The notes beneath the pieces were generated by a model. The model ran no database searches and was not told the DNA's origin. It saw only the letters and a program-made list of their open reading frames with translations. Of a stretch of 64,000 nucleotides of DNA, positions 9,909-18,694 are shown in pieces. The stretch is from Corallococcus macrosporus DSM 14697 (GTDB lineage: Bacteria; Myxococcota; Myxococcia; Myxococcales; Myxococcaceae), in the NCBI RefSeq assembly GCF_002305895.1, contig NZ_CP022203.1, forward strand, positions 1,466,501-1,530,500, written 5' to 3'. The translations under genes and the position numbers were made by a program. Each line of letters opens with the position of its first letter. Position 1 is the stretch's first letter.

Positions 9909-9954
9909 AGTGCTGAGAATCCTCCAGAGCCACGCTTTGCCTCCCGAGGACCTC

Positions 9955-11118
9955 ATGCCTTCCACGACCGACAGCGGCAGACCTCCCGCGCAGTCTCGCG
10001 TTCCCCGTCCACCCGCGACTCCGGACGCACCCCAGCCCCTCTTTACGGTGGGCGGCGTCCGTTATGAGGCCGTGCGTGAGTTGGTGCGGATGCCAACGGG
10101 CGAGGTGCTCCTTCAAGCGCTCCGATACGCGCTGGAAGAGGAGGTGCCGGGGCGGTGCCTCGTGCGGCGTCTGCCCAGCCCTTCTACCTACGAGGAGCGC
10201 AAACGGCTCTCGGATGAAATTCAATTGGCCTTCCGGCTCAATCACCCCGGAATCGCCCAGGTCTTCCACCTGAAGATTCACCGGAACACGCCTCACGTCG
10301 TCATGGAGTACGTGGAAGGGCCCTCGCTGGACACGCTCGTGAGCGCGGGCATGGCCCGGGGCAGGCCCGTGTCCGAGGCGTTGGCCCTCTACATCGGCGC
10401 GGAAATCGCCGATGCCCTGCACTACGCCCACACATTGCGCGGCGAGGATGGCAGGCCGCTGGGCATCATCCACCGCGACGTCAACCCCCGGCACCTCTAC
10501 CTGGGGGCGCACGGCGGGGTGAAGCTGGCCAACTTCGGGGCGGCCTACTCTCTCATGGTGGGGCGGCTGGAGTCCCCCGCCAATCTCGTCCGAGGCGACG
10601 TGGCCTACGCCTCCCCTGAGTACCTGGAGCGACTGCCGCTGTCCCCGGCCTCCGACATCTTCAGCCTGGGCGTGGTGCTCGTGGAGCTGCTGACGGGGAA
10701 GCACCTCTTCGACGTGGAGGACGTGCCGTCGCCCCCCGAGGGGCTGAGCTCGCTGCGGGCCGAGCAGTTCACGTCCCTTCCGCTCACGCAGATGCGCGTG
10801 CTGCTCTCCAGTTTCAGTCCGGCGGAGGTCGAGGCCGCGGTGGCGGGGCTGTCTCCGGATGTGAAGGCCCTTCTCCATTCAGCGCTACGCATCGTCCCGG
10901 ATGAGCGCTTCGCGACGGCGGCGGACATGGGAGGCGTTCTGCGCGCGGCCCTGACGAAGCGGTACCCGTCCTATGGGCGGCAGGATGCCCGGCAAGAGGT
11001 CGCCCGCGTCATCGCGGAGGGGAGCTGCCTCCGTGACGTGGTGGAGTTCGGTGAGGCGGGCCTGTACCCGGAGGGATTGGACGCGCACGAACTCGGCGCG
11101 CTCGGGGAAGAAGATTAG
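9955..11118 (+). CDS. Degenerate Ser/Thr protein kinase (probable pseudokinase)
   Basis: A 387-aa soluble protein with a Hanks-type kinase fold at about residues 30-300. Key catalytic residues are changed. There is no Gly-rich loop at about 44-52 (MPTGEV). The beta-3 strand reads CLVRRL with Arg71 where the ATP-anchoring Lys is expected. HRD (173-175) is kept, but the catalytic-loop Asn is His180 (HRDVNPRH), and DFG has become NFG (193-195). ATP-dependent phosphotransfer is therefore doubtful and a scaffolding or sensing role is more likely. APE is kept as SPEY. The ATG at 9955 has GAGGA just upstream; a GTG at 9910 is the alternative. The gene converges on the XRE regulator gene with a 4-bp overlap of the stops. 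Confidence 0.85.
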   Translation: MPSTTDSGRPPAQSRVPRPPATPDAPQPLFTVGGVRYEAVRELVRMPTGEVLLQALRYALEEEVPGRCLVRRLPSPSTYEERKRLSDEIQLAFRLNHPGIAQVFHLKIHRNTPHVVMEYVEGPSLDTLVSAGMARGRPVSEALALYIGAEIADALHYAHTLRGEDGRPLGIIHRDVNPRHLYLGAHGGVKLANFGAAYSLMVGRLESPANLVRGDVAYASPEYLERLPLSPASDIFSLGVVLVELLTGKHLFDVEDVPSPPEGLSSLRAEQFTSLPLTQMRVLLSSFSPAEVEAAVAGLSPDVKALLHSALRIVPDERFATAADMGGVLRAALTKRYPSYGRQDARQEVARVIAEGSCLRDVVEFGEAGLYPEGLDAHELGALGEED

Positions 11119-11474
11119 CGAGTCAGGGCGTCGGCGACGTGGAGGAGCGCATCCAGCTTCTCCGCGTCCAACTTCCGCGCGAGGGCGAGCAGCCGGCGCA
11201 GCTCGGCCGTCTCGGCATCCAGGAGCGGCGCGCGCGAGGGCTTCTTCGCCGTCCCCTGGGGTGCCGTGCCAAGCAGGACTTCGGGGGAGAGGCCCAGGGT
11301 CAGGCTGAGGCGGTGGAGGACGGTGACGCTGGGCAGCACCTTCCCTCGCTCCATTCGACGGTAGGCGGGCTCCACCAGGCCCACGCGTTCGGCCACCTCG
11401 GCCCGAGTCATCCCCAACTTCTCCCGTGCTTCACGAGCGGCGGTGCCGATGGTGATTGCCAGTTCTTCATTCAT
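11115..11474 (-). CDS. XRE-family helix-turn-helix transcriptional regulator
   Basis: A 119-aa DNA-binding protein. Residues about 9-64 form a Cro/C1-type HTH: IGTAAREAREKLGMTRAEVAERVG, then YRRMERGKVLPSVTVLHRLSLTLGLSPEVLL. The C-terminal 45 residues (DAETAELRRLLALARKLD) are helical and probably mediate dimerisation. Its stop overlaps the stop of the kinase-like gene by 4 bp. It is divergent from the active kinase gene, with 369 bp between. Palindromic TGGAC/GTCCA elements lie in both flanking control regions and are candidate operators for this protein; this is inference from position and symmetry. Confidence 0.88.
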   Translation of the reverse strand: MNEELAITIGTAAREAREKLGMTRAEVAERVGLVEPAYRRMERGKVLPSVTVLHRLSLTLGLSPEVLLGTAPQGTAKKPSRAPLLDAETAELRRLLALARKLDAEKLDALLHVADALTR

Positions 11475-11843: not shown

Positions 11844-13682
11844 ATGAGGGTGAGGGAGCCTGCCCTCGCGGAGCTTTCTCCCGGAGCCCAGGTGATGGGC
11901 TACACGGTGGAGCGCCGGTTGGGCAGTGGCGGCTTCGGGGCCGTGTATCTCGCGCGGTGCGAGGGGCGGGCCTATGCGCTCAAGTTGTTGGACCTGGCGC
12001 GCGTGGGCGGGCGGGTGGAGCGCGAAGTCTCCATCCTGCTGAAGCTGGACCACCCCAACGTGGTGGGCATTCACGGCTTCGGGGTGTGGCCGGTGGCGTC
12101 CCCTACGCTCGGCGTCATCGTCATGGAGTACGTGGAAGGGCGGCAGTTGGACGTCTGGGCGTCCGAGGAGAACCCCTCTGCGCGGCAGGTGGCGCGCGTG
12201 GTGCTGGACGTGGCGCGGGCGCTGGAGGCTTCCCACGAGGCGGGAGTGCTTCACCGCGACGTGAAGGAGCTCAACGTCATGGTGCGCGCCTCGGATGGCG
12301 TGGCCAAGCTGGTGGACTTCGGTGTCGGGGACTACGCGGGGGCACCCGGAATCACAGTGGACATCCTCCCGCCAGGGACACCCGAGTACCGCTCCCCGGA
12401 GGCGTGGAGCTTCTTCCGGCGGAACGCCCGCGTGCCAAGGGCCTTCTTCACACCGGGCGCCTCGGACGACCTGTGGGCGCTGGGCGTGGTCCTCTACCGG
12501 CTCTTGACGGCGCGCCCGCCCTTTCCGACCGACCACTTCATGTTGGCGGATGCCGTCATCGCGAACGAGGCGCTTCCTCCGTGTCAGGTGAATGACCGGG
12601 TGCCCGTGGCGCTCAGCGAGGTGTGCATGGCGCTGCTGGCGAAGACGCCGGCCTCGCGGACGCCGAGCGCGGGGGCGCTTCGTGTAGCGCTGGAGGCGCT
12701 CCTTCAAGGAGCGGACGCGGCCTGGGACGTTCCGCTGTGCGACGCCTACGGCGAGGACACGGCGACGACGGAAGGGGGGATGGACAGTCACGAGCAGTGG
12801 CTGAACGAACCGCTGCGCCGGCCCCGGCGTGGGAAGCGGCCGAAGCGGGAGCTGCCGCCCCTGTGGGAGGGACCGGCTCTGCTGATGGAAGCGGAGGCCG
12901 CTGCGGCACGGACGCCAAGGCCCGTGCGCAGCTCCCGAGGCTGGCGCATGGGGGCCATGGCGTTGCTCGTGGGGTGCGTCTCAGCGGGGCTGGTGTGGGG
13001 CTGGCGCACGCCACGCGTCGCGGTGCCTGCGCCGACCCGTCAGGAAGTAGCGCGGCCTGGGAGTTCGTCCCAAGCTGTCCGCGCCGCAGCTCTCCCCTCT
13101 GGCGCGGAGTCCACCCCTGCGGCCGTCGCTGCCCCTGCGATGCTGCCCGAGGCCACACCCGTGAAGATGGAGAAGACCGAGAGCCCGACGCCACCGAAGC
13201 CCGCCAGGAAGGGCGCTGGCGCCATGCGAAGGCCGATTGTCGCCGCTGCGGCCTGTATGGGGTTGGCGTGCCCTGGCGCGCAGGTGCGCCCACCGCCTCC
13301 CCCTGAGCCGTGTCCTGAGCGCGCTGTCGAGGTGATGGAGAGGTTGGGCGTCAAGGTGGGAGACCACTGGGGCGTGACCTTTCTGGTCGACCATCCGCAG
13401 GTCATCAAGGTGACCGATGGCCCGGCGGAGCTGCGGCTGCTCGCTGATTGGAACCGCATGCCGGACGGCACGCTCTTCTCCGGGAGACTCATCGTGAGTG
13501 ACCGGGTCTACGGGCGGTTCACCCATGCGCGCACCCGTGATGGGAAGCGCTTCCCCGTTTGCTTGGAGCTGGAATCCGAGTCCCTGGTGAAGGGCCTGGC
13601 GAGAGAGCCAGGGGATGACAGCCCCGCGTCGGCGCGCGTCTTCACGACTGGGGACGTGAGAGCGGTGGATGCGTTTGATTGA
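11844..13682 (+). CDS. Transmembrane Ser/Thr protein kinase with extra C-terminal module
   Basis: A 612-aa protein with an apparently active Hanks-type kinase at residues 20-290: Gly-loop GSGGFG (27-32), Lys47 in YALKLL, Glu61, catalytic loop HRDVKELN (137-144), DFG (158-160) and SPE in the activation segment. A Lys/Arg-rich juxtamembrane stretch (325-337) precedes one transmembrane helix at about 368-387, then a Pro/Ala-rich linker. From residue 461 the chain contains a signal-peptide-like segment (MRRPIVAAAACMGLACPGA) followed by about 120 residues with mixed alpha/beta character. The ATG at 11844 has AGGAGAAGGG upstream (11830-11839) and is preferred over the longer frame from 11712. The kinase domain should be cytoplasmic and the C-terminus outside. 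The DUF2381 gene follows 35 bp downstream, so the two are likely co-transcribed. Confidence 0.9.
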   Translation: MRVREPALAELSPGAQVMGYTVERRLGSGGFGAVYLARCEGRAYALKLLDLARVGGRVEREVSILLKLDHPNVVGIHGFGVWPVASPTLGVIVMEYVEGRQLDVWASEENPSARQVARVVLDVARALEASHEAGVLHRDVKELNVMVRASDGVAKLVDFGVGDYAGAPGITVDILPPGTPEYRSPEAWSFFRRNARVPRAFFTPGASDDLWALGVVLYRLLTARPPFPTDHFMLADAVIANEALPPCQVNDRVPVALSEVCMALLAKTPASRTPSAGALRVALEALLQGADAAWDVPLCDAYGEDTATTEGGMDSHEQWLNEPLRRPRRGKRPKRELPPLWEGPALLMEAEAAAARTPRPVRSSRGWRMGAMALLVGCVSAGLVWGWRTPRVAVPAPTRQEVARPGSSSQAVRAAALPSGAESTPAAVAAPAMLPEATPVKMEKTESPTPPKPARKGAGAMRRPIVAAAACMGLACPGAQVRPPPPPEPCPERAVEVMERLGVKVGDHWGVTFLVDHPQVIKVTDGPAELRLLADWNRMPDGTLFSGRLIVSDRVYGRFTHARTRDGKRFPVCLELESESLVKGLAREPGDDSPASARVFTTGDVRAVDAFD

Positions 13683-13717: not shown

Positions 13718-14629
13718 ATGCGTGCAACATCACCGGTCATTCTCCTCCTGGTCGCGCTCGTGGCGGAGGGGGCCCAGGCTCAGGGAGCCCTGGCGTCGGG
13801 GAGCGGCGCTCGGCGCATTGAGCTGGGGCCAGATGATTCCGGGGCACTGACAGAGATCGCGGTCAGCCCCGGCTTGTCCACCGTGATTCTCTTCGATTCA
13901 GAACTGGCTCAAGACGGGGTCGCCGTGGAGGGGAGCAGCAGCTTCTCGAATGTCGACATCGGCCGCACGACGATGCGGTTGGTTCCCTCGGGGCGGGGGC
14001 AGCCTGGGGAGAAGTTCCGAATGTCGGTGCGGTTCCGCGACGGCGCGGCACCTCCTGGCGCGTCGTTCCTGCTGACAATTCATCCCGCACGCGCGGACAG
14101 CGTCGTCGAGGTGTATCGGAACGCGAGGACCGTGGAGTCGTACCAGCAGGAGGCGCGGGAGGCGCGCTCCGAGACGCTGCGCTGCATGGAAGAAAACGCG
14201 CGCCTGGTGGCGGAGCGTGGTGCCCCGGGGGGGCTGGCCGGACTGCTTGCGACAGGCGGCGTCGATGCGAACGGTGTGGCTGGCTGGAGCGTGACCAACA
14301 CGGTTGCCTCAGACCCGAGGAACGCCCTCAAGCCTTTCAGGGTCCAGAGCTACCGCGCGAAGGCCCGCGTCGCGCTTGAAGTCTTACTGCATGACCTGCG
14401 GGGAGAACGGCCGTGGGTTGTCAGTGGCGCCACGCTTCGCGGTTCTCCAGGAACCGAGCTGAAAGTGCTCAATGTCTGGCAGTCATCGCCCATCACATCG
14501 GGCCAGACTGCCAGGGTGGTTGTCGAAGCGGAAGCGCCGGCCGAATCAGCACGCGGTGCATTCTCACTCAAGCTGTGGGAGGCCGACGGCCCCCGGACGG
14601 TCACGATTGGCAACGTGACGTTCCCCTGA
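13718..14629 (+). CDS. DUF2381 (TIGR02268) family exported protein
   Basis: A 303-aa protein with a Sec signal peptide (MRATSPVILLLVALVAEGAQA). The body fits the Myxococcus paralogous family TIGR02268/DUF2381: ARRIELGPDDSG near the N-terminus, ELAQDGVAVEG, RMSVRFRDGAAP with beta-rich spacing, then a charged helical stretch (about residues 125-160) and a C-terminal beta-domain ending in TVTIGNVTFP. No function is established for the family; its members in myxobacteria are often next to Ser/Thr kinase genes, as here. It sits 35 bp after the kinase stop and 130 bp before the first toxin gene, so it could belong to either unit. Periplasmic location is expected. Confidence 0.82.
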   Translation: MRATSPVILLLVALVAEGAQAQGALASGSGARRIELGPDDSGALTEIAVSPGLSTVILFDSELAQDGVAVEGSSSFSNVDIGRTTMRLVPSGRGQPGEKFRMSVRFRDGAAPPGASFLLTIHPARADSVVEVYRNARTVESYQQEAREARSETLRCMEENARLVAERGAPGGLAGLLATGGVDANGVAGWSVTNTVASDPRNALKPFRVQSYRAKARVALEVLLHDLRGERPWVVSGATLRGSPGTELKVLNVWQSSPITSGQTARVVVEAEAPAESARGAFSLKLWEADGPRTVTIGNVTFP

Positions 14630-14759: not shown

Positions 14760-16316
14760 ATGCGTGCTGGCCATTGGGTGGTGGGAGTCGCCCTGCTTCT
14801 CACGGGCTGCGCCGGGGTTGAGTCGTCGACTCGCAGGGAGACGTTCCATCAGCGCGCGGCGCTTCCGGGGGAGCGGTGGACCGCTTCGGGCGAGGACGCC
14901 GAGTACGAGCCCGAGGCCGAAGCGGCGGAAGGCGCGTCCAGGCAACCGCTTCACCGGCGCCACCTGTTCCGGGACGGGATGCTCCTGGGAGGGGCGCGCG
15001 GGCAGGAGGACGAATTCGACGTCCTGCTTCGCAACGCGGGACTCGAAGCACGGGACGCGCGGCCTGTTGCGGGCAACCCACTCACTCCGAAGCACGCGGC
15101 GCGACTCCTCCAAGCGTTGATGGGGAGGGACGTGACGCTGGGCCAGTTCCCTGCGCGGCTCGCGGTGGGCTTCCTGCTGCGGGAGGTGCTGGCGACGGGG
15201 GAGGTGTCGCGGGCCGAGTTGGTGCGCCGGGTGGAGCGCTTCAGGCACCTGGCGGTGCTGCGGCCAGACGGGCGGCTTGCGTGGGTGCGCAGCGGACGGA
15301 CGCAGCAGCGGGTGGCGGACGTCGGGTGGAAGGACGGAGCCTTCCGCGCCCATGGCTTCGAGTTGGGGCGCTTCTACGACGGGCGGACGGGTGTCTTCCG
15401 GCTGCTGAATGATGAGCTGCGGGAGGAGAGCGGCTTCCCGCTGGCGGACGTCCACGATGATGCGGACGTCGTCAGCCGCACGCTGGACGGGGCGGAGGAG
15501 GCCTTCGTCGGGCTGGCCCTCGCGGTGGGGAAGTTCTTCTCGACGTCTCCGGCGGACAACCTCGAGGCACTTCGGGAGATGCCCGCCGCCGTGGTGGCGT
15601 TGCTGAAGTCGTCTCCCGAGTACCTGGAGCGCTTCCGGTACATGACGCGGGGCGAGCAGGTACAAGCCGTCTCCAAGCTGGTGACGAACCTCATCGCCAC
15701 CTGGGGGACGGCGTCGGCCGCGACGCGTACGTTGGAGGGGACGGCGCTCGCCACGGCGGAAGTGCCCGCGCTCGTCTTGTCCGCCCAGGGCACCGTCGCG
15801 ATGCGACTTGTGGCGGCGCCGGTGGGGCGCGCGGCGGCGGTGCTGAGCGGCGGGCCTGGGGCGGCCATCATTCTTCAGCGGGCGGGCACCGCCGCGAAGG
15901 ACGGCGCACCGTCGAAGGGGCCCGGCCAGTGGGGGCCGGCGAAGGAGTCCATGTCCCCACGGGCCCGGCGCTACCAGGAACAAATCGCGGGACATTCAGC
16001 GGACGAGGCATACTGGGTCGGAGGCGTCGGCAGGGACAGGGGAGGCGTGAAGTTCGATGGGTTCGATGCAGGGGTGCTGCTGGAGGCGAAGGGGCCGGGC
16101 TATGCCAGGTTCTTCGAAGAACTCGACCCGAAACGCTGGTTCAAAAACTCGGGGGCGAAGGCTCTTGGCGAACAGGCGCTCCGACAGGTGAAGGCGGCCA
16201 AAGGGATGCCCATTCGTTGGCACGTAGCAGAGGAAACCGCTGTCCCTGCACTTCGGAAGCTACTTCAGGACAGAGGAATTAAAGGGATCGAGGTTGTTTT
16301 CACACCTCCCCTTTGA
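14760..16316 (+). CDS. Lipoprotein toxin with Tox-REase-5-like nuclease C-terminus (copy 1)
   Basis: A 518-aa lipoprotein. The type II signal is clear: MRAGHWVVGVALLLTGC, with Cys17 as the lipid-attachment residue. Residues 18-389 are a conserved carrier region of unknown fold, with a hydrophobic Ala/Gly-rich segment at about 325-375. The C-terminal tip (about 390-518) carries the Tox-REase-5 signature VKFDGFDAGVLLEAKGPGY, giving a PD-(D/E)xK-type set of Asp433, Glu442 and Lys444. It is therefore a predicted DNase-like toxin. An Imm52-like gene follows after 13 nt. A lipid-anchored nuclease with a conserved carrier and variable tip resembles the SitA toxins transferred between myxobacterial cells by TraA/TraB outer-membrane exchange; membership in a named Sit family is not shown here. 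GAGGGAGG in the leader is the likely ribosome-site region. Confidence 0.85.
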   Translation: MRAGHWVVGVALLLTGCAGVESSTRRETFHQRAALPGERWTASGEDAEYEPEAEAAEGASRQPLHRRHLFRDGMLLGGARGQEDEFDVLLRNAGLEARDARPVAGNPLTPKHAARLLQALMGRDVTLGQFPARLAVGFLLREVLATGEVSRAELVRRVERFRHLAVLRPDGRLAWVRSGRTQQRVADVGWKDGAFRAHGFELGRFYDGRTGVFRLLNDELREESGFPLADVHDDADVVSRTLDGAEEAFVGLALAVGKFFSTSPADNLEALREMPAAVVALLKSSPEYLERFRYMTRGEQVQAVSKLVTNLIATWGTASAATRTLEGTALATAEVPALVLSAQGTVAMRLVAAPVGRAAAVLSGGPGAAIILQRAGTAAKDGAPSKGPGQWGPAKESMSPRARRYQEQIAGHSADEAYWVGGVGRDRGGVKFDGFDAGVLLEAKGPGYARFFEELDPKRWFKNSGAKALGEQALRQVKAAKGMPIRWHVAEETAVPALRKLLQDRGIKGIEVVFTPPL

Positions 16317-16329
16317 TGAGGAGACGAGA

Positions 16330-17052
16330 GTGGTGGAGACTTACTATGCCGCTGCATACTGGCGCGCGCGCAAGGAATCATCGGATGAATGCGCATCTCG
16401 CGTGGTGGCCTTGCTCGAATCTATCGCTGGAGTTGAGGCGTCGTTCGCTAGCTGGTTCAGGCAGAGCAAGGCGCGAAAGGACGCTTGGAAAAAGCCGGTC
16501 ACGCCCAATCAGGCTGAACTCGCAAAGGCGCTGGAGCGCACCAAGGATCGGCATCATGAAGATCTTGGTTATCGAATAGGCGGATGGAACGGCGCCTCTG
16601 AAGATTCCGACGCATGCAGTTTTGATGCAGCCGTGGGCATCTACTCCGAATGGGTTAACAACTTCTGGCTCTTTGAGCTGCCCATTCACGGTGCAAGTGC
16701 TGAACGCGTCTTGACGGCACGAGTTTTAAGCGGGCTTCTTAGGAGCATGGCGACAGCATTAGACCCTGATTGGGGTGTTGCCATGTCTCATGCACATCGG
16801 GAAATTGCCGACTCAACCGGACGGGCAAATGTCCAGATTGGGTGGGTGACGTACCTCGCGCGTCATCGGGGCACGGTGCCGCCGCTTCCTGCCCCCGTGC
16901 GCATCGAGCAGGTAGAGGACAAGGGCACCCTCATCGTTCTCACACCCGAGCGCTTCACGGCGGACAACCCGGAGCATGTGGCGCTGGCTGAGCGGGTGCG
17001 GGAGCTGCTGGACCGGGCCGGGCTCTTGAAGCCGCTCCAGGCCAAACCATAG
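16330..17052 (+). CDS. Imm52-like immunity protein (copy 1)
   Basis: A 240-aa cytoplasmic protein that should neutralise the toxin encoded 13 nt upstream. The N-terminus VETYYAAAYWRARKES and the following ECASRVVALLESIAGVEASFASWF, then GWNGASED, fit Imm52. I chose GTG 16330 because it aligns exactly with the ATG of the paralogue at 18709 and has GAGGAG at 16318-16323. A longer frame from a TTG at 16294 would overlap the toxin stop. About the last 65 residues (from VPPLPAPVRIEQV) are almost identical to those of the paralogue, while the remainder is strongly divergent. The divergent part has lower GC than its surroundings, pointing to transfer or exchange. Confidence 0.82.
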   Translation: MVETYYAAAYWRARKESSDECASRVVALLESIAGVEASFASWFRQSKARKDAWKKPVTPNQAELAKALERTKDRHHEDLGYRIGGWNGASEDSDACSFDAAVGIYSEWVNNFWLFELPIHGASAERVLTARVLSGLLRSMATALDPDWGVAMSHAHREIADSTGRANVQIGWVTYLARHRGTVPPLPAPVRIEQVEDKGTLIVLTPERFTADNPEHVALAERVRELLDRAGLLKPLQAKP

Positions 17053-17161: not shown

Positions 17162-18694
17162 ATGCGTGCTGGCCATTGGGTGGTGGGTGTCGCCCTGCTT
17201 CTCACGGGCTGCGCCGGGGTTGAGTCGTCGACTCGCAGGGAGACGCTCCATCAGCGCGCGGCGCTTCCGGGGGAGCGGTGGACCGCTTCGGGCGAGGACG
17301 CCGAGTACGAGCCCGAGGCCGAAGCGGCGGAAGGCGCGTCCAGGCAACCGCTTCACCGGCGCCACCTGTTCCGGGACGGGATGCTCCTGGGAGGGGCGCG
17401 CGGGCAGGAGGATGAATTCGACGTCCTGCTTCGCAACGCGGGCCTGGAAGCACGGGACGCGCGGCCTGTCGCGGGCAACCCACTCACTCCGAAGCACGCG
17501 GCGCGACTCCTCCAAGCGTTGATGGGGAGGGACGTGACGCTGGGCCAGTTCCCGGCGCGGCTCGCGGTGGGCTTCATGCTGCGGGAGGTGCTGGCGACGG
17601 GGGAGGTGTCGCGGGCCGAGTTGGCGCGCCGGGTGGAGCGCTTCAGGTACGTGGCGGTGCTGCGGCCAGACGGGCGGCTTGCGTGGGTGCGCAGCGGACG
17701 GACGCAGCAGCGGGTGGCGGACGTCGGGTGGAAGGACGGAGCCTTCCGCGCCCATGGCTTCGAGTTGGGGCGCTTCTACGACGGGCGGACGGGAGTCTTC
17801 CGGCTGCTGGACGATGAGCTGCGGGAGGAGAGCGGCTTCCCGCTGGCGGACGTGCATGATGATGCGGACGTCGTCAGCCGCACGCTGGACGGGGCGGAGG
17901 AGGCCTTCGTCGGGCTGGCCCTCGCGGTGGGGAAGTTCTTCTCGACGTCGCCAGCGGAGAGCCTCGCGGCGCTGAGGGAGCTGCCGGCCGGGGTGGTGGC
18001 GCTGTTGAGGTCGTCCCCCGAGTACCTGGAGCGCTTCGGGTACATGACCCGGGGTGAGCAGGTGCAGGCCGTCTCGAAGCTGGTGACGAACCTCATCGCC
18101 ACCTGGGGGACGGCGTCGGCCGCGACGCGTACGTTGGAGGGGACGGCGCTCGCCACGGCGGAAGTGCCCGCGCTCGTCTTGTCCGCCCAGGGCACCGTCG
18201 CGATGCGACTTGTGGCGGCGCCGGTGGGGCGCGCGGCGGCGGTGCTGAGCGGCGGGCCTGGGGCGGCCATCATCCTTCAGCGGGCTGACACCGCTGCGAA
18301 GGACGGCGCACCGTCGAAGGGGCCCGGGCGCTGGCGGCCTGCCAAGGAGCACATGGAGGAACCTGCCCGAAGGTATCAGGCCCAGGTCGCTTCAGCGCCC
18401 GAGGGACAGGTTTACGAGATCGACAACGTGAAGTTCGATGGGTTCAACGGTGCCTCGTTGCTAGAGGCAAAAGGTCCAGGCTATGAGAAGTTTCTTGGGC
18501 AGGGTGTGGAGCAAGGAGGATGGTTCGAGGGGTTCATGGGCATGGTCAAACAAGCGAGGAGCCAACAACGTGTTTCCCGTGGGTTCCCCATTGAGTGGCA
18601 CTGTGCGGAGAGCCGGGTCGCGGACTATGTGCGAGTTCTCTTCAGGCGAAACGGCTTGGGAAGAATCTCAGTCATCCACACGCCGCCGAACTGA
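17162..18694 (+). CDS. Lipoprotein toxin with Tox-REase-5-like nuclease C-terminus (copy 2)
   Basis: A 510-aa paralogue of the toxin at 14760. By manual alignment, 375 of the first 389 residues are identical, and seven of the 14 changes cluster at residues 266-293. The lipobox and Cys17 are the same. The tip (about 390-510) has the same nuclease signature in a different sequence context: NVKFDGFNGASLLEAKGPGY with Asp425, Glu434 and Lys436, then an unrelated-looking helical stretch (VEQGGWFEGFMGMVKQARS) and FPIEWHCAE. The ending HTPPN parallels FTPPL of copy 1. The shared nuclease class with a divergent tip suggests a toxin of the same activity but different immunity specificity. The immunity gene starts 14 nt after the stop. 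Confidence 0.85.
   Translation: MRAGHWVVGVALLLTGCAGVESSTRRETLHQRAALPGERWTASGEDAEYEPEAEAAEGASRQPLHRRHLFRDGMLLGGARGQEDEFDVLLRNAGLEARDARPVAGNPLTPKHAARLLQALMGRDVTLGQFPARLAVGFMLREVLATGEVSRAELARRVERFRYVAVLRPDGRLAWVRSGRTQQRVADVGWKDGAFRAHGFELGRFYDGRTGVFRLLDDELREESGFPLADVHDDADVVSRTLDGAEEAFVGLALAVGKFFSTSPAESLAALRELPAGVVALLRSSPEYLERFGYMTRGEQVQAVSKLVTNLIATWGTASAATRTLEGTALATAEVPALVLSAQGTVAMRLVAAPVGRAAAVLSGGPGAAIILQRADTAAKDGAPSKGPGRWRPAKEHMEEPARRYQAQVASAPEGQVYEIDNVKFDGFNGASLLEAKGPGYEKFLGQGVEQGGWFEGFMGMVKQARSQQRVSRGFPIEWHCAESRVADYVRVLFRRNGLGRISVIHTPPN

What the first reader, a model, noticed from the sequence alone, without database searches (positions are those of the whole stretch)
13224..13682. Second signal-peptide-like start embedded in the kinase gene
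Within the kinase frame, ATG 13224 (residue 461) is preceded by AGGAAGGG and begins MRRPIVAAAACMGLACPGA, a signal or lipoprotein-like sequence followed by a compact 120-residue domain. The kinase already has its own membrane helix (368-387). This looks like a fusion of a kinase and a small exported protein, or a nested gene giving a separate 152-aa product.
Basis: partly seen in the sequence, partly recalled or inferred. Interest (0 to 1): 0.52.

Follow-up and report, generated by a model that had tools for sequence, protein, structure and literature searches.

The report
Myxobacterial kinase with VirB10-like outer domain
The odd second half of this bacterial kinase is most likely not a hidden second gene but an export-like remnant followed by a small beta-barrel resembling a core part of DNA-transfer machines, which suggests that these bacteria reuse machine parts as cell-surface sensors.

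Summary
Observation real, interpretation partly right. ATG 13224 lies in frame in a 612-aa Ser/Thr kinase; a basic, weakly hydrophobic, lipobox-like segment (Cys476) and a 123-aa domain follow. Of 88 related ORFs of the fused class, 87 carry the kinase in the same frame and 87 keep the Cys; 27 relatives are stand-alone lipoproteins. So the fusion reading holds. A nested gene is not supported as a general feature: 20 of 88 have no start codon there, and Met461 is limited to part of the family.

The domain, unmatched in Pfam, is modelled as a VirB10-type C-terminal beta-barrel (VIA Z up to 9.3; unrelated folds 2.8 or less). Its profile hits kinases of other Myxococcota in which Pfam itself finds TrbI/VirB10. 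It neighbours DUF2381 (18 of 18 DUF2381 genes here; 6 of 6 distant loci). One DUF2381 reaches Pfam's TraK_C (VirB9-like) cut-off, but profile comparison with VirB9 was not significant.

Best reading: a VirB10-shaped receptor kinase (kinase, membrane helix, proline-rich linker, barrel) paired with a secreted, possibly VirB9-like protein. Signal, binding and topology are untested. My searches of the held papers found no description.

The parts
11844..13682 (+). 612-aa Ser/Thr kinase with VirB10-like C-terminal domain (whole ORF with stop)
11901..12659 (+). protein kinase domain, residues 20-272; K47, H137-R138-D139, D158 and G160 invariant in 13 aligned kinases, F159 in 90% or more
   Evidence: Pfam PF00069 4.9e-35; alignment A4
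12945..13004 (+). membrane helix TM1, residues about 368-387
   Evidence: hydropathy of 83 of the 88 fused ORFs; helix 368-385 in the model, low confidence
13005..13223 (+). proline/alanine-rich linker, residues 388-460, probably periplasmic
   Evidence: sequence; alignment; pLDDT under 50
13206..13213 (+). SD-like AGGAAGGG, 10 nt before ATG 13224; encoded by Arg-Lys-Gly codons
13224..13280 (+). signal-like segment, residues 461-479, with Cys471 and lipobox-position Cys476
13311..13679 (+). VirB10 C-terminal-like beta-barrel, residues 490-612, with conserved Cys490 and Cys573
13718..14629 (+). DUF2381/TIGR02268 secreted protein, proposed VirB9-like partner
11115..11474 (-). divergent XRE-type HTH gene; homologues beside most paralogous kinase-barrel genes examined

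Best explanation
The gene encodes a one-pass receptor Ser/Thr kinase built like VirB10: cytoplasmic kinase, membrane helix, proline-rich periplasmic linker, then a small VirB10/TrbI-type beta-barrel. The secreted product of the next gene, DUF2381, is a VirB9-like partner that binds the barrel and passes an envelope or cell-contact signal to the kinase. Residues 461-479 correspond to the signal peptide and lipobox of the stand-alone lipoprotein form of the same domain; in the kinase they are a retained, modified remnant, not a working start or export signal. Shown here: fusion, stand-alone lipoprotein relatives, pairing with DUF2381, a VirB10-like predicted fold and a sequence link. Inferred: topology, binding, direction of signalling, loss of lipidation. 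Unknown: the signal and the substrate.
For: Fold: AlphaFold2 model of 172 residues, its residues from about 45 on mostly confident; all 14 top VIA rows are chains of type IV secretion core complexes or ComB10, Z 9.3-6.8, next row 2.8 (that each chain is the VirB10-type subunit is partly my reading of titles and residue ranges); Foldseek's first eight rows are of the same kind, best E 1.8e-3. Sequence: profile-profile with TrbI-matching proteins 89.6%, E 1.9e-6; VirB9 control 0.4%; the 115-row profile hits the TrbI part of eight ORFs, best E 1.4e-6 among 600 ORFs. Pfam finds kinase plus TrbI in one ORF in other Myxococcota: L183 36.4 bits against cut-off 35, L186 34.4, L187 31.7, L190 28.8; L209 36.1, L212 34.7, L214 31.3. 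Pairing: 18 of 18 TIGR02268 genes of this genome lie beside a domain gene and 18 of 19 domain genes beside a TIGR02268 gene; six of six TrbI-kinase loci have a DUF2381-like gene directly upstream. Partner: L200 DUF2381 reaches TraK_C, 32.6 bits against 28.5; L210 matches DUF4138 and L213 CagX, both under cut-off (that DUF4138 is a TraN/VirB9-like family is recalled). Gene order VirB9 then VirB10 in F and R388 matches DUF2381 then domain. Exactly two Cys follow the lipobox-position Cys in 84 of 88 fused and 27 of 27 stand-alone ORFs, which fits a disulfide in an oxidising compartment.
Against: The window protein itself has no TrbI or other Pfam match for the domain. Comparison with VirB10 proper is weaker: 29.9% with a seven-row set and about 0% with single TraB or TrwE. 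DUF2381 is not significant against VirB9 profiles, TraK or TrwF, and only 1 of 38 members of A5 gave a TraK_C hit, E 0.03. No PF03743 or PF03524 match in this genome. The modelled barrel has no helical antenna. The basic patch before segment 2 fits a periplasmic linker badly (positive-inside rule). Cys distances could not be measured: no coordinates were given. 15 of 85 fused ORFs with room showed no downstream DUF2381; several of these have it upstream.
Confidence: 0.7

Rival explanations
1. Nested gene: in this lineage ribosomes also start at ATG 13224 and make a separate lipoprotein of 152 aa beside the kinase.
For: ATG in all 8 rows of the window's set and 14 of 15 of another; SD-like energy -7.0 in the window; stand-alone lipoproteins exist.
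Against: 20 of 88 fused ORFs have no start codon there and 0 of 8 of a close set has the ATG; 10-nt spacing; the SD-like run is set by amino acids and its Arg codon varies; the h-region is weaker than in stand-alone forms (KD 1.84 against 2.34); the segment is conserved also where no start exists.
Confidence: 0.08
2. Internal lipoprotein: Cys476 is lipidated inside the full-length kinase or after cleavage, anchoring the barrel in a membrane.
For: Cys kept in 87 of 88; lipobox-like pattern in 74 of 88 against 3 of 356 other Cys.
Against: With TM1 spanning, segment 2 would lie on the wrong side for a signal-peptide orientation (inference); 84 of 88 fused ORFs have a second Cys within -16 to -1 and 0 of 27 stand-alone forms do, which suggests a Cys pair rather than a lipid (inference).
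Confidence: 0.1
3. Two-helix hairpin: segment 2 is a second membrane pass and the domain is cytoplasmic.
For: Hydrophobic, no Asp/Glu in -12 to -1 in 88 of 88.
Against: Short and weak (summed insertion scale +3.5 against +0.4 for TM1; scale recalled); basic residues lie before it, on what would be the periplasmic side; not helical and of low confidence in the model; conserved Cys pair in the domain.
Confidence: 0.1
4. The barrel resembles VirB10 only by convergence and has nothing to do with transfer-machine cores.
For: Single-sequence comparisons are not significant; the window protein has no Pfam match for the domain.
Against: Pfam-level kinase-TrbI fusions are hit by the domain profile in the aligned region and have the same DUF2381 neighbour.
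Confidence: 0.1

Closest known systems
VirB10/TrbI family (TrwE, TraB, CagY, ComB10, DotG), outer-membrane core of type IV secretion systems
   Same: Layout (cytoplasmic part, one membrane helix, linker, C-terminal barrel), predicted barrel fold, and a possibly VirB9-type gene beside it
   Different: Kinase in the cytoplasmic part, no helical antenna in the model, no VirB9/VirB10 Pfam match in this genome, lipobox-like segment before the barrel
VirB9/TraK family
   Same: One DUF2381 (L200) has a C-terminal TraK_C match above the cut-off; secreted; gene beside the VirB10-like one
   Different: The window's DUF2381 matches only DUF2381/TIGR02268; profile comparison with VirB9 not significant
Bacterial receptor Ser/Thr kinases such as PASTA kinases (PknB)
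   Same: Cytoplasmic kinase and one membrane helix; NF033483 is the best NCBIfam match, below its cut-off
   Different: Extracytoplasmic part is a VirB10-like barrel; no PASTA match in Pfam

Membership tests
VirB10/TrbI domain (PF03743) | Pfam gathering score in the window protein | tested here: not met
   no match; 2 of 30 A1 members weak, best E 0.033
VirB10/TrbI domain (PF03743) | gathering score in homologous kinases | tested here: met
   L183 36.4 bits against 35; L209, the same locus, 36.1; L186 34.4 and L212 34.7 just under, others lower
VirB10/TrbI domain (PF03743) | C-terminal beta-barrel fold | tested here: met
   predicted model only: 14 top rows Z 9.3-6.8
VirB10/TrbI domain (PF03743) | helical antenna in the barrel domain | tested here: not met
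   only one short helix in the domain of the model, before the strands
Type IV secretion system | companion VirB9 and VirB10 genes by Pfam in the genome | tested here: not met
   no PF03743 or PF03524 match in G000
VirB9/TraK family for DUF2381 | profile match | tested here: inconclusive
   L200 above the TraK_C cut-off, L202 just under in hmmscan; hhalign with VirB9, TraK and TrwF not significant
Receptor Ser/Thr kinase | kinase domain with K, HRD and DFG plus a membrane helix | tested here: met
   (by sequence; activity not tested)
Bacterial lipoprotein | lipobox Cys after an N-terminal signal peptide | tested here: not met
   lipobox-like pattern present, but 460 residues from the kinase start; lipidation not testable here

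The most novel reading that the evidence does not exclude
A VirB9-VirB10 core pair has been taken from secretion machines and multiplied as a set of trans-envelope sensors: each kinase's barrel assembles with its DUF2381 protein, perhaps as a ring at the outer membrane, and signals inward. That would explain a whole uncharacterised myxobacterial protein family (DUF2381/TIGR02268), and the stand-alone lipoprotein would be a kinase-free version.
Probability: 0.4. Interest if true: 0.8.

Novelty: new variant of a known kind. Interest (0 to 1): 0.62.

Why it matters
Myxobacteria have very many Ser/Thr kinases whose inputs are mostly unknown. This gives one large class a likely sensor fold, a likely partner and a testable model, gives DUF2381/TIGR02268 a proposed function, and offers a case of secretion-machine core parts reused for signalling.

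Tried and rejected
Nested gene: rejected as a family-wide feature. Direction of evolution (lipoprotein fused to kinase, or kinase lost): left open. The outgroup kinases lack the segment and any Cys in the last 80 residues before the barrel (6 of 6), but the tree with them does not settle the root. In the trees 26 of 27 or 19 of 20 (near-copies thinned) stand-alone forms make one clade. Fused and stand-alone classes were first split by a kinase regex that failed for five ORFs; I moved these to the fused class by inspection; a kinase profile then confirmed four, while L010 has its kinase in another, overlapping frame. L038 (short frame) and L039 (contig end) were dropped, leaving 115 of 117 distinct ORFs from 162 hits. 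The start of the domain in alignment A1 was set by me at the Cys-Pro/Ser motif, so the invariance of its first Cys there is partly by construction. Genome-contig search with P0001 found nothing. Domain profile against PDB sequences: only fatty-acid-binding proteins at E 0.2 or worse. DUF2381 profile against PDB sequences: only coiled-coil or designed chains at E 0.21 or worse. Literature: DUF2381 and TIGR02268 gave 0 papers; VirB10 with Myxococcus and kinase gave 2 unrelated listings; further searches gave no description in the listings seen. Subscription journals are mostly not held. [quoted passage not shown]

Full report
Observation. ATG 13224 is residue 461 of a 612-aa kinase (11844-13682), preceded at 10 nt by AGGAAGGG, and starts a basic, weakly hydrophobic segment with two Cys and a domain of 123 aa. 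Pfam finds the kinase (20-272) and nothing in the last 152 residues; NCBIfam likewise finds nothing there.

Relatives. With the 152 aa, 15 places match in the own genome, and 29 of 61 genomes searched have a match. A profile of the domain alone, without the signal-like segment, gives 19 places in the own genome and matches in 67 of 145 genomes at order level. From the fetched loci I took 117 distinct ORFs and classified 115: 88 fused and 27 stand-alone. A kinase profile is found in the same ORF in 87 of 88 and in 0 of 27. The stand-alone forms look like typical lipoproteins: in most, a Met about 20 residues before a [GA]C, with a Leu-rich stretch between.

The segment. In the fused ORFs the same position keeps its Cys in 87 of 88 and A/G/S before it in 88 of 88; 74 of 88 fit the lipobox-like pattern, against 3 of 356 other upstream Cys and 25 of 27 stand-alone forms. 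It is less hydrophobic than in stand-alone forms (1.84 against 2.34), and 84 of 88 have a further Cys within 16 residues upstream, against 0 of 27. My inference is a relic of a lipoprotein leader whose Cys has gained a partner. AlphaFold2 gives it low confidence and no helix.

Internal start. 44 of 88 have an ATG and 68 of 88 any start codon in -30 to -10; a control stretch just upstream gives 40 and 85, another further up 9 and 39. Met461 belongs to part of the family. A nested gene is therefore not the reason for the conservation of the segment, though it cannot be excluded for this lineage.

Fold. The 172-residue model has a confident beta-rich domain. Its 14 best VIA matches all come from type IV secretion core complexes or ComB10 (Z 9.3 to 6.8), followed by a drop to 2.8; Foldseek's best E is only 1.8e-3. 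Sequence supports this: profile-profile 89.6% with 12 TrbI-matching sequences of Myxococcota, control 0.4%. Six of those 12 are weak TrbI matches; with the six strong ones and R388 VirB10 alone the value falls to 29.9%, E 5.6e-4. I scanned four of the weak TrbI proteins (three of them in that set), and all four are kinases: Pfam finds PF00069 and PF03743 in one ORF, and again in three longer ORFs, two of them from other loci. The domain profile hits them in the same region. So the 89.6% partly reflects likeness to TrbI-bearing kinases, which in turn Pfam links to TrbI. In six longer ORFs there is a membrane helix and a linker with 12-20% proline but no lipobox-like segment (6 of 6).

Partner. 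Of 18 TIGR02268 genes in the own genome, all lie beside a domain gene: by my reading of the coordinates 8 follow a kinase-domain gene, 6 precede one, and 4 precede a stand-alone lipoprotein gene. One domain gene (6954520) has no such neighbour. In the wider set, 70 of 85 fused ORFs with room have DUF2381 downstream and 23 of 27 stand-alone ones have it upstream. The six TrbI-kinase loci have a DUF2381-like gene directly upstream (E 1.5e-34 to 2e-5); Pfam calls it DUF2381 in five and weakly CagX in one. The three TraK_C matches over the cut-off among 117 genomes were all DUF2381 proteins; hmmscan puts one above the cut-off and one just under (the third was not rescanned). Direct profile comparisons with VirB9 and TraK failed. 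I call DUF2381 VirB9-like as a supported guess.

Mechanism. In secretion systems VirB10 spans from cytoplasm to outer membrane and forms the outer core with VirB9 (passages of PMC12624023); TraK and TraB are the F-plasmid homologues and touch each other (passages of PMC8617172). The kinase has the same order of parts. The simplest model is an outside-in relay: DUF2381 on the barrel, then helix, then kinase. None of these steps was tested.

Context. A divergent XRE-type gene lies between the kinase gene and a second kinase gene (9910-11118). Homologues of it occur at 6 of the 7 other own-genome loci with the order kinase then DUF2381 (L049-L054, not L046) and at 11 of the 14 named loci. Downstream lies a lipoprotein toxin with Tox-REase-5 and an Imm52 gene, resembling the SitA cassettes of M. 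xanthus (passages of PMC5562445 and PMC8546572); that resemblance is a lead and was not tested.

Noticed in passing
14760-16316, 16294-17052, 17162-18694: Lipoprotein toxin gene (Tox-REase-5) with Imm52 immunity gene, followed by a second lipoprotein gene with a nearly identical N-terminal part and a different C-terminus; looks like SitA-type tandem cassettes. A similar N-terminal part lies downstream of the kinase and DUF2381 genes in L163, L166 and L175, and on the other strand in L174.
   Followed up: partly
L046 1210-2409 and 2030-3328: Kinase and barrel lie in different, overlapping frames: a frameshifted or split paralogue in the own genome.
   Followed up: no
L016: One orthologue has Phe in place of the lipobox-position Cys but keeps the upstream Cys.
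   Followed up: no
L163: The record title says Comamonas sp. KCTC 72670, but the contig length equals that of contig C10 of G024, a genome of the window's genus: probably a mislabelled record.
   Followed up: no
11115-11474: Divergent XRE-type HTH gene beside the window's and most paralogous kinase-barrel genes; possible regulator of the cassette.
   Followed up: partly
L209-L214: Kinases of other Myxococcota with C-terminal TrbI matches and an upstream DUF2381-like gene: a wider family of kinase-VirB10 fusions.
   Followed up: partly
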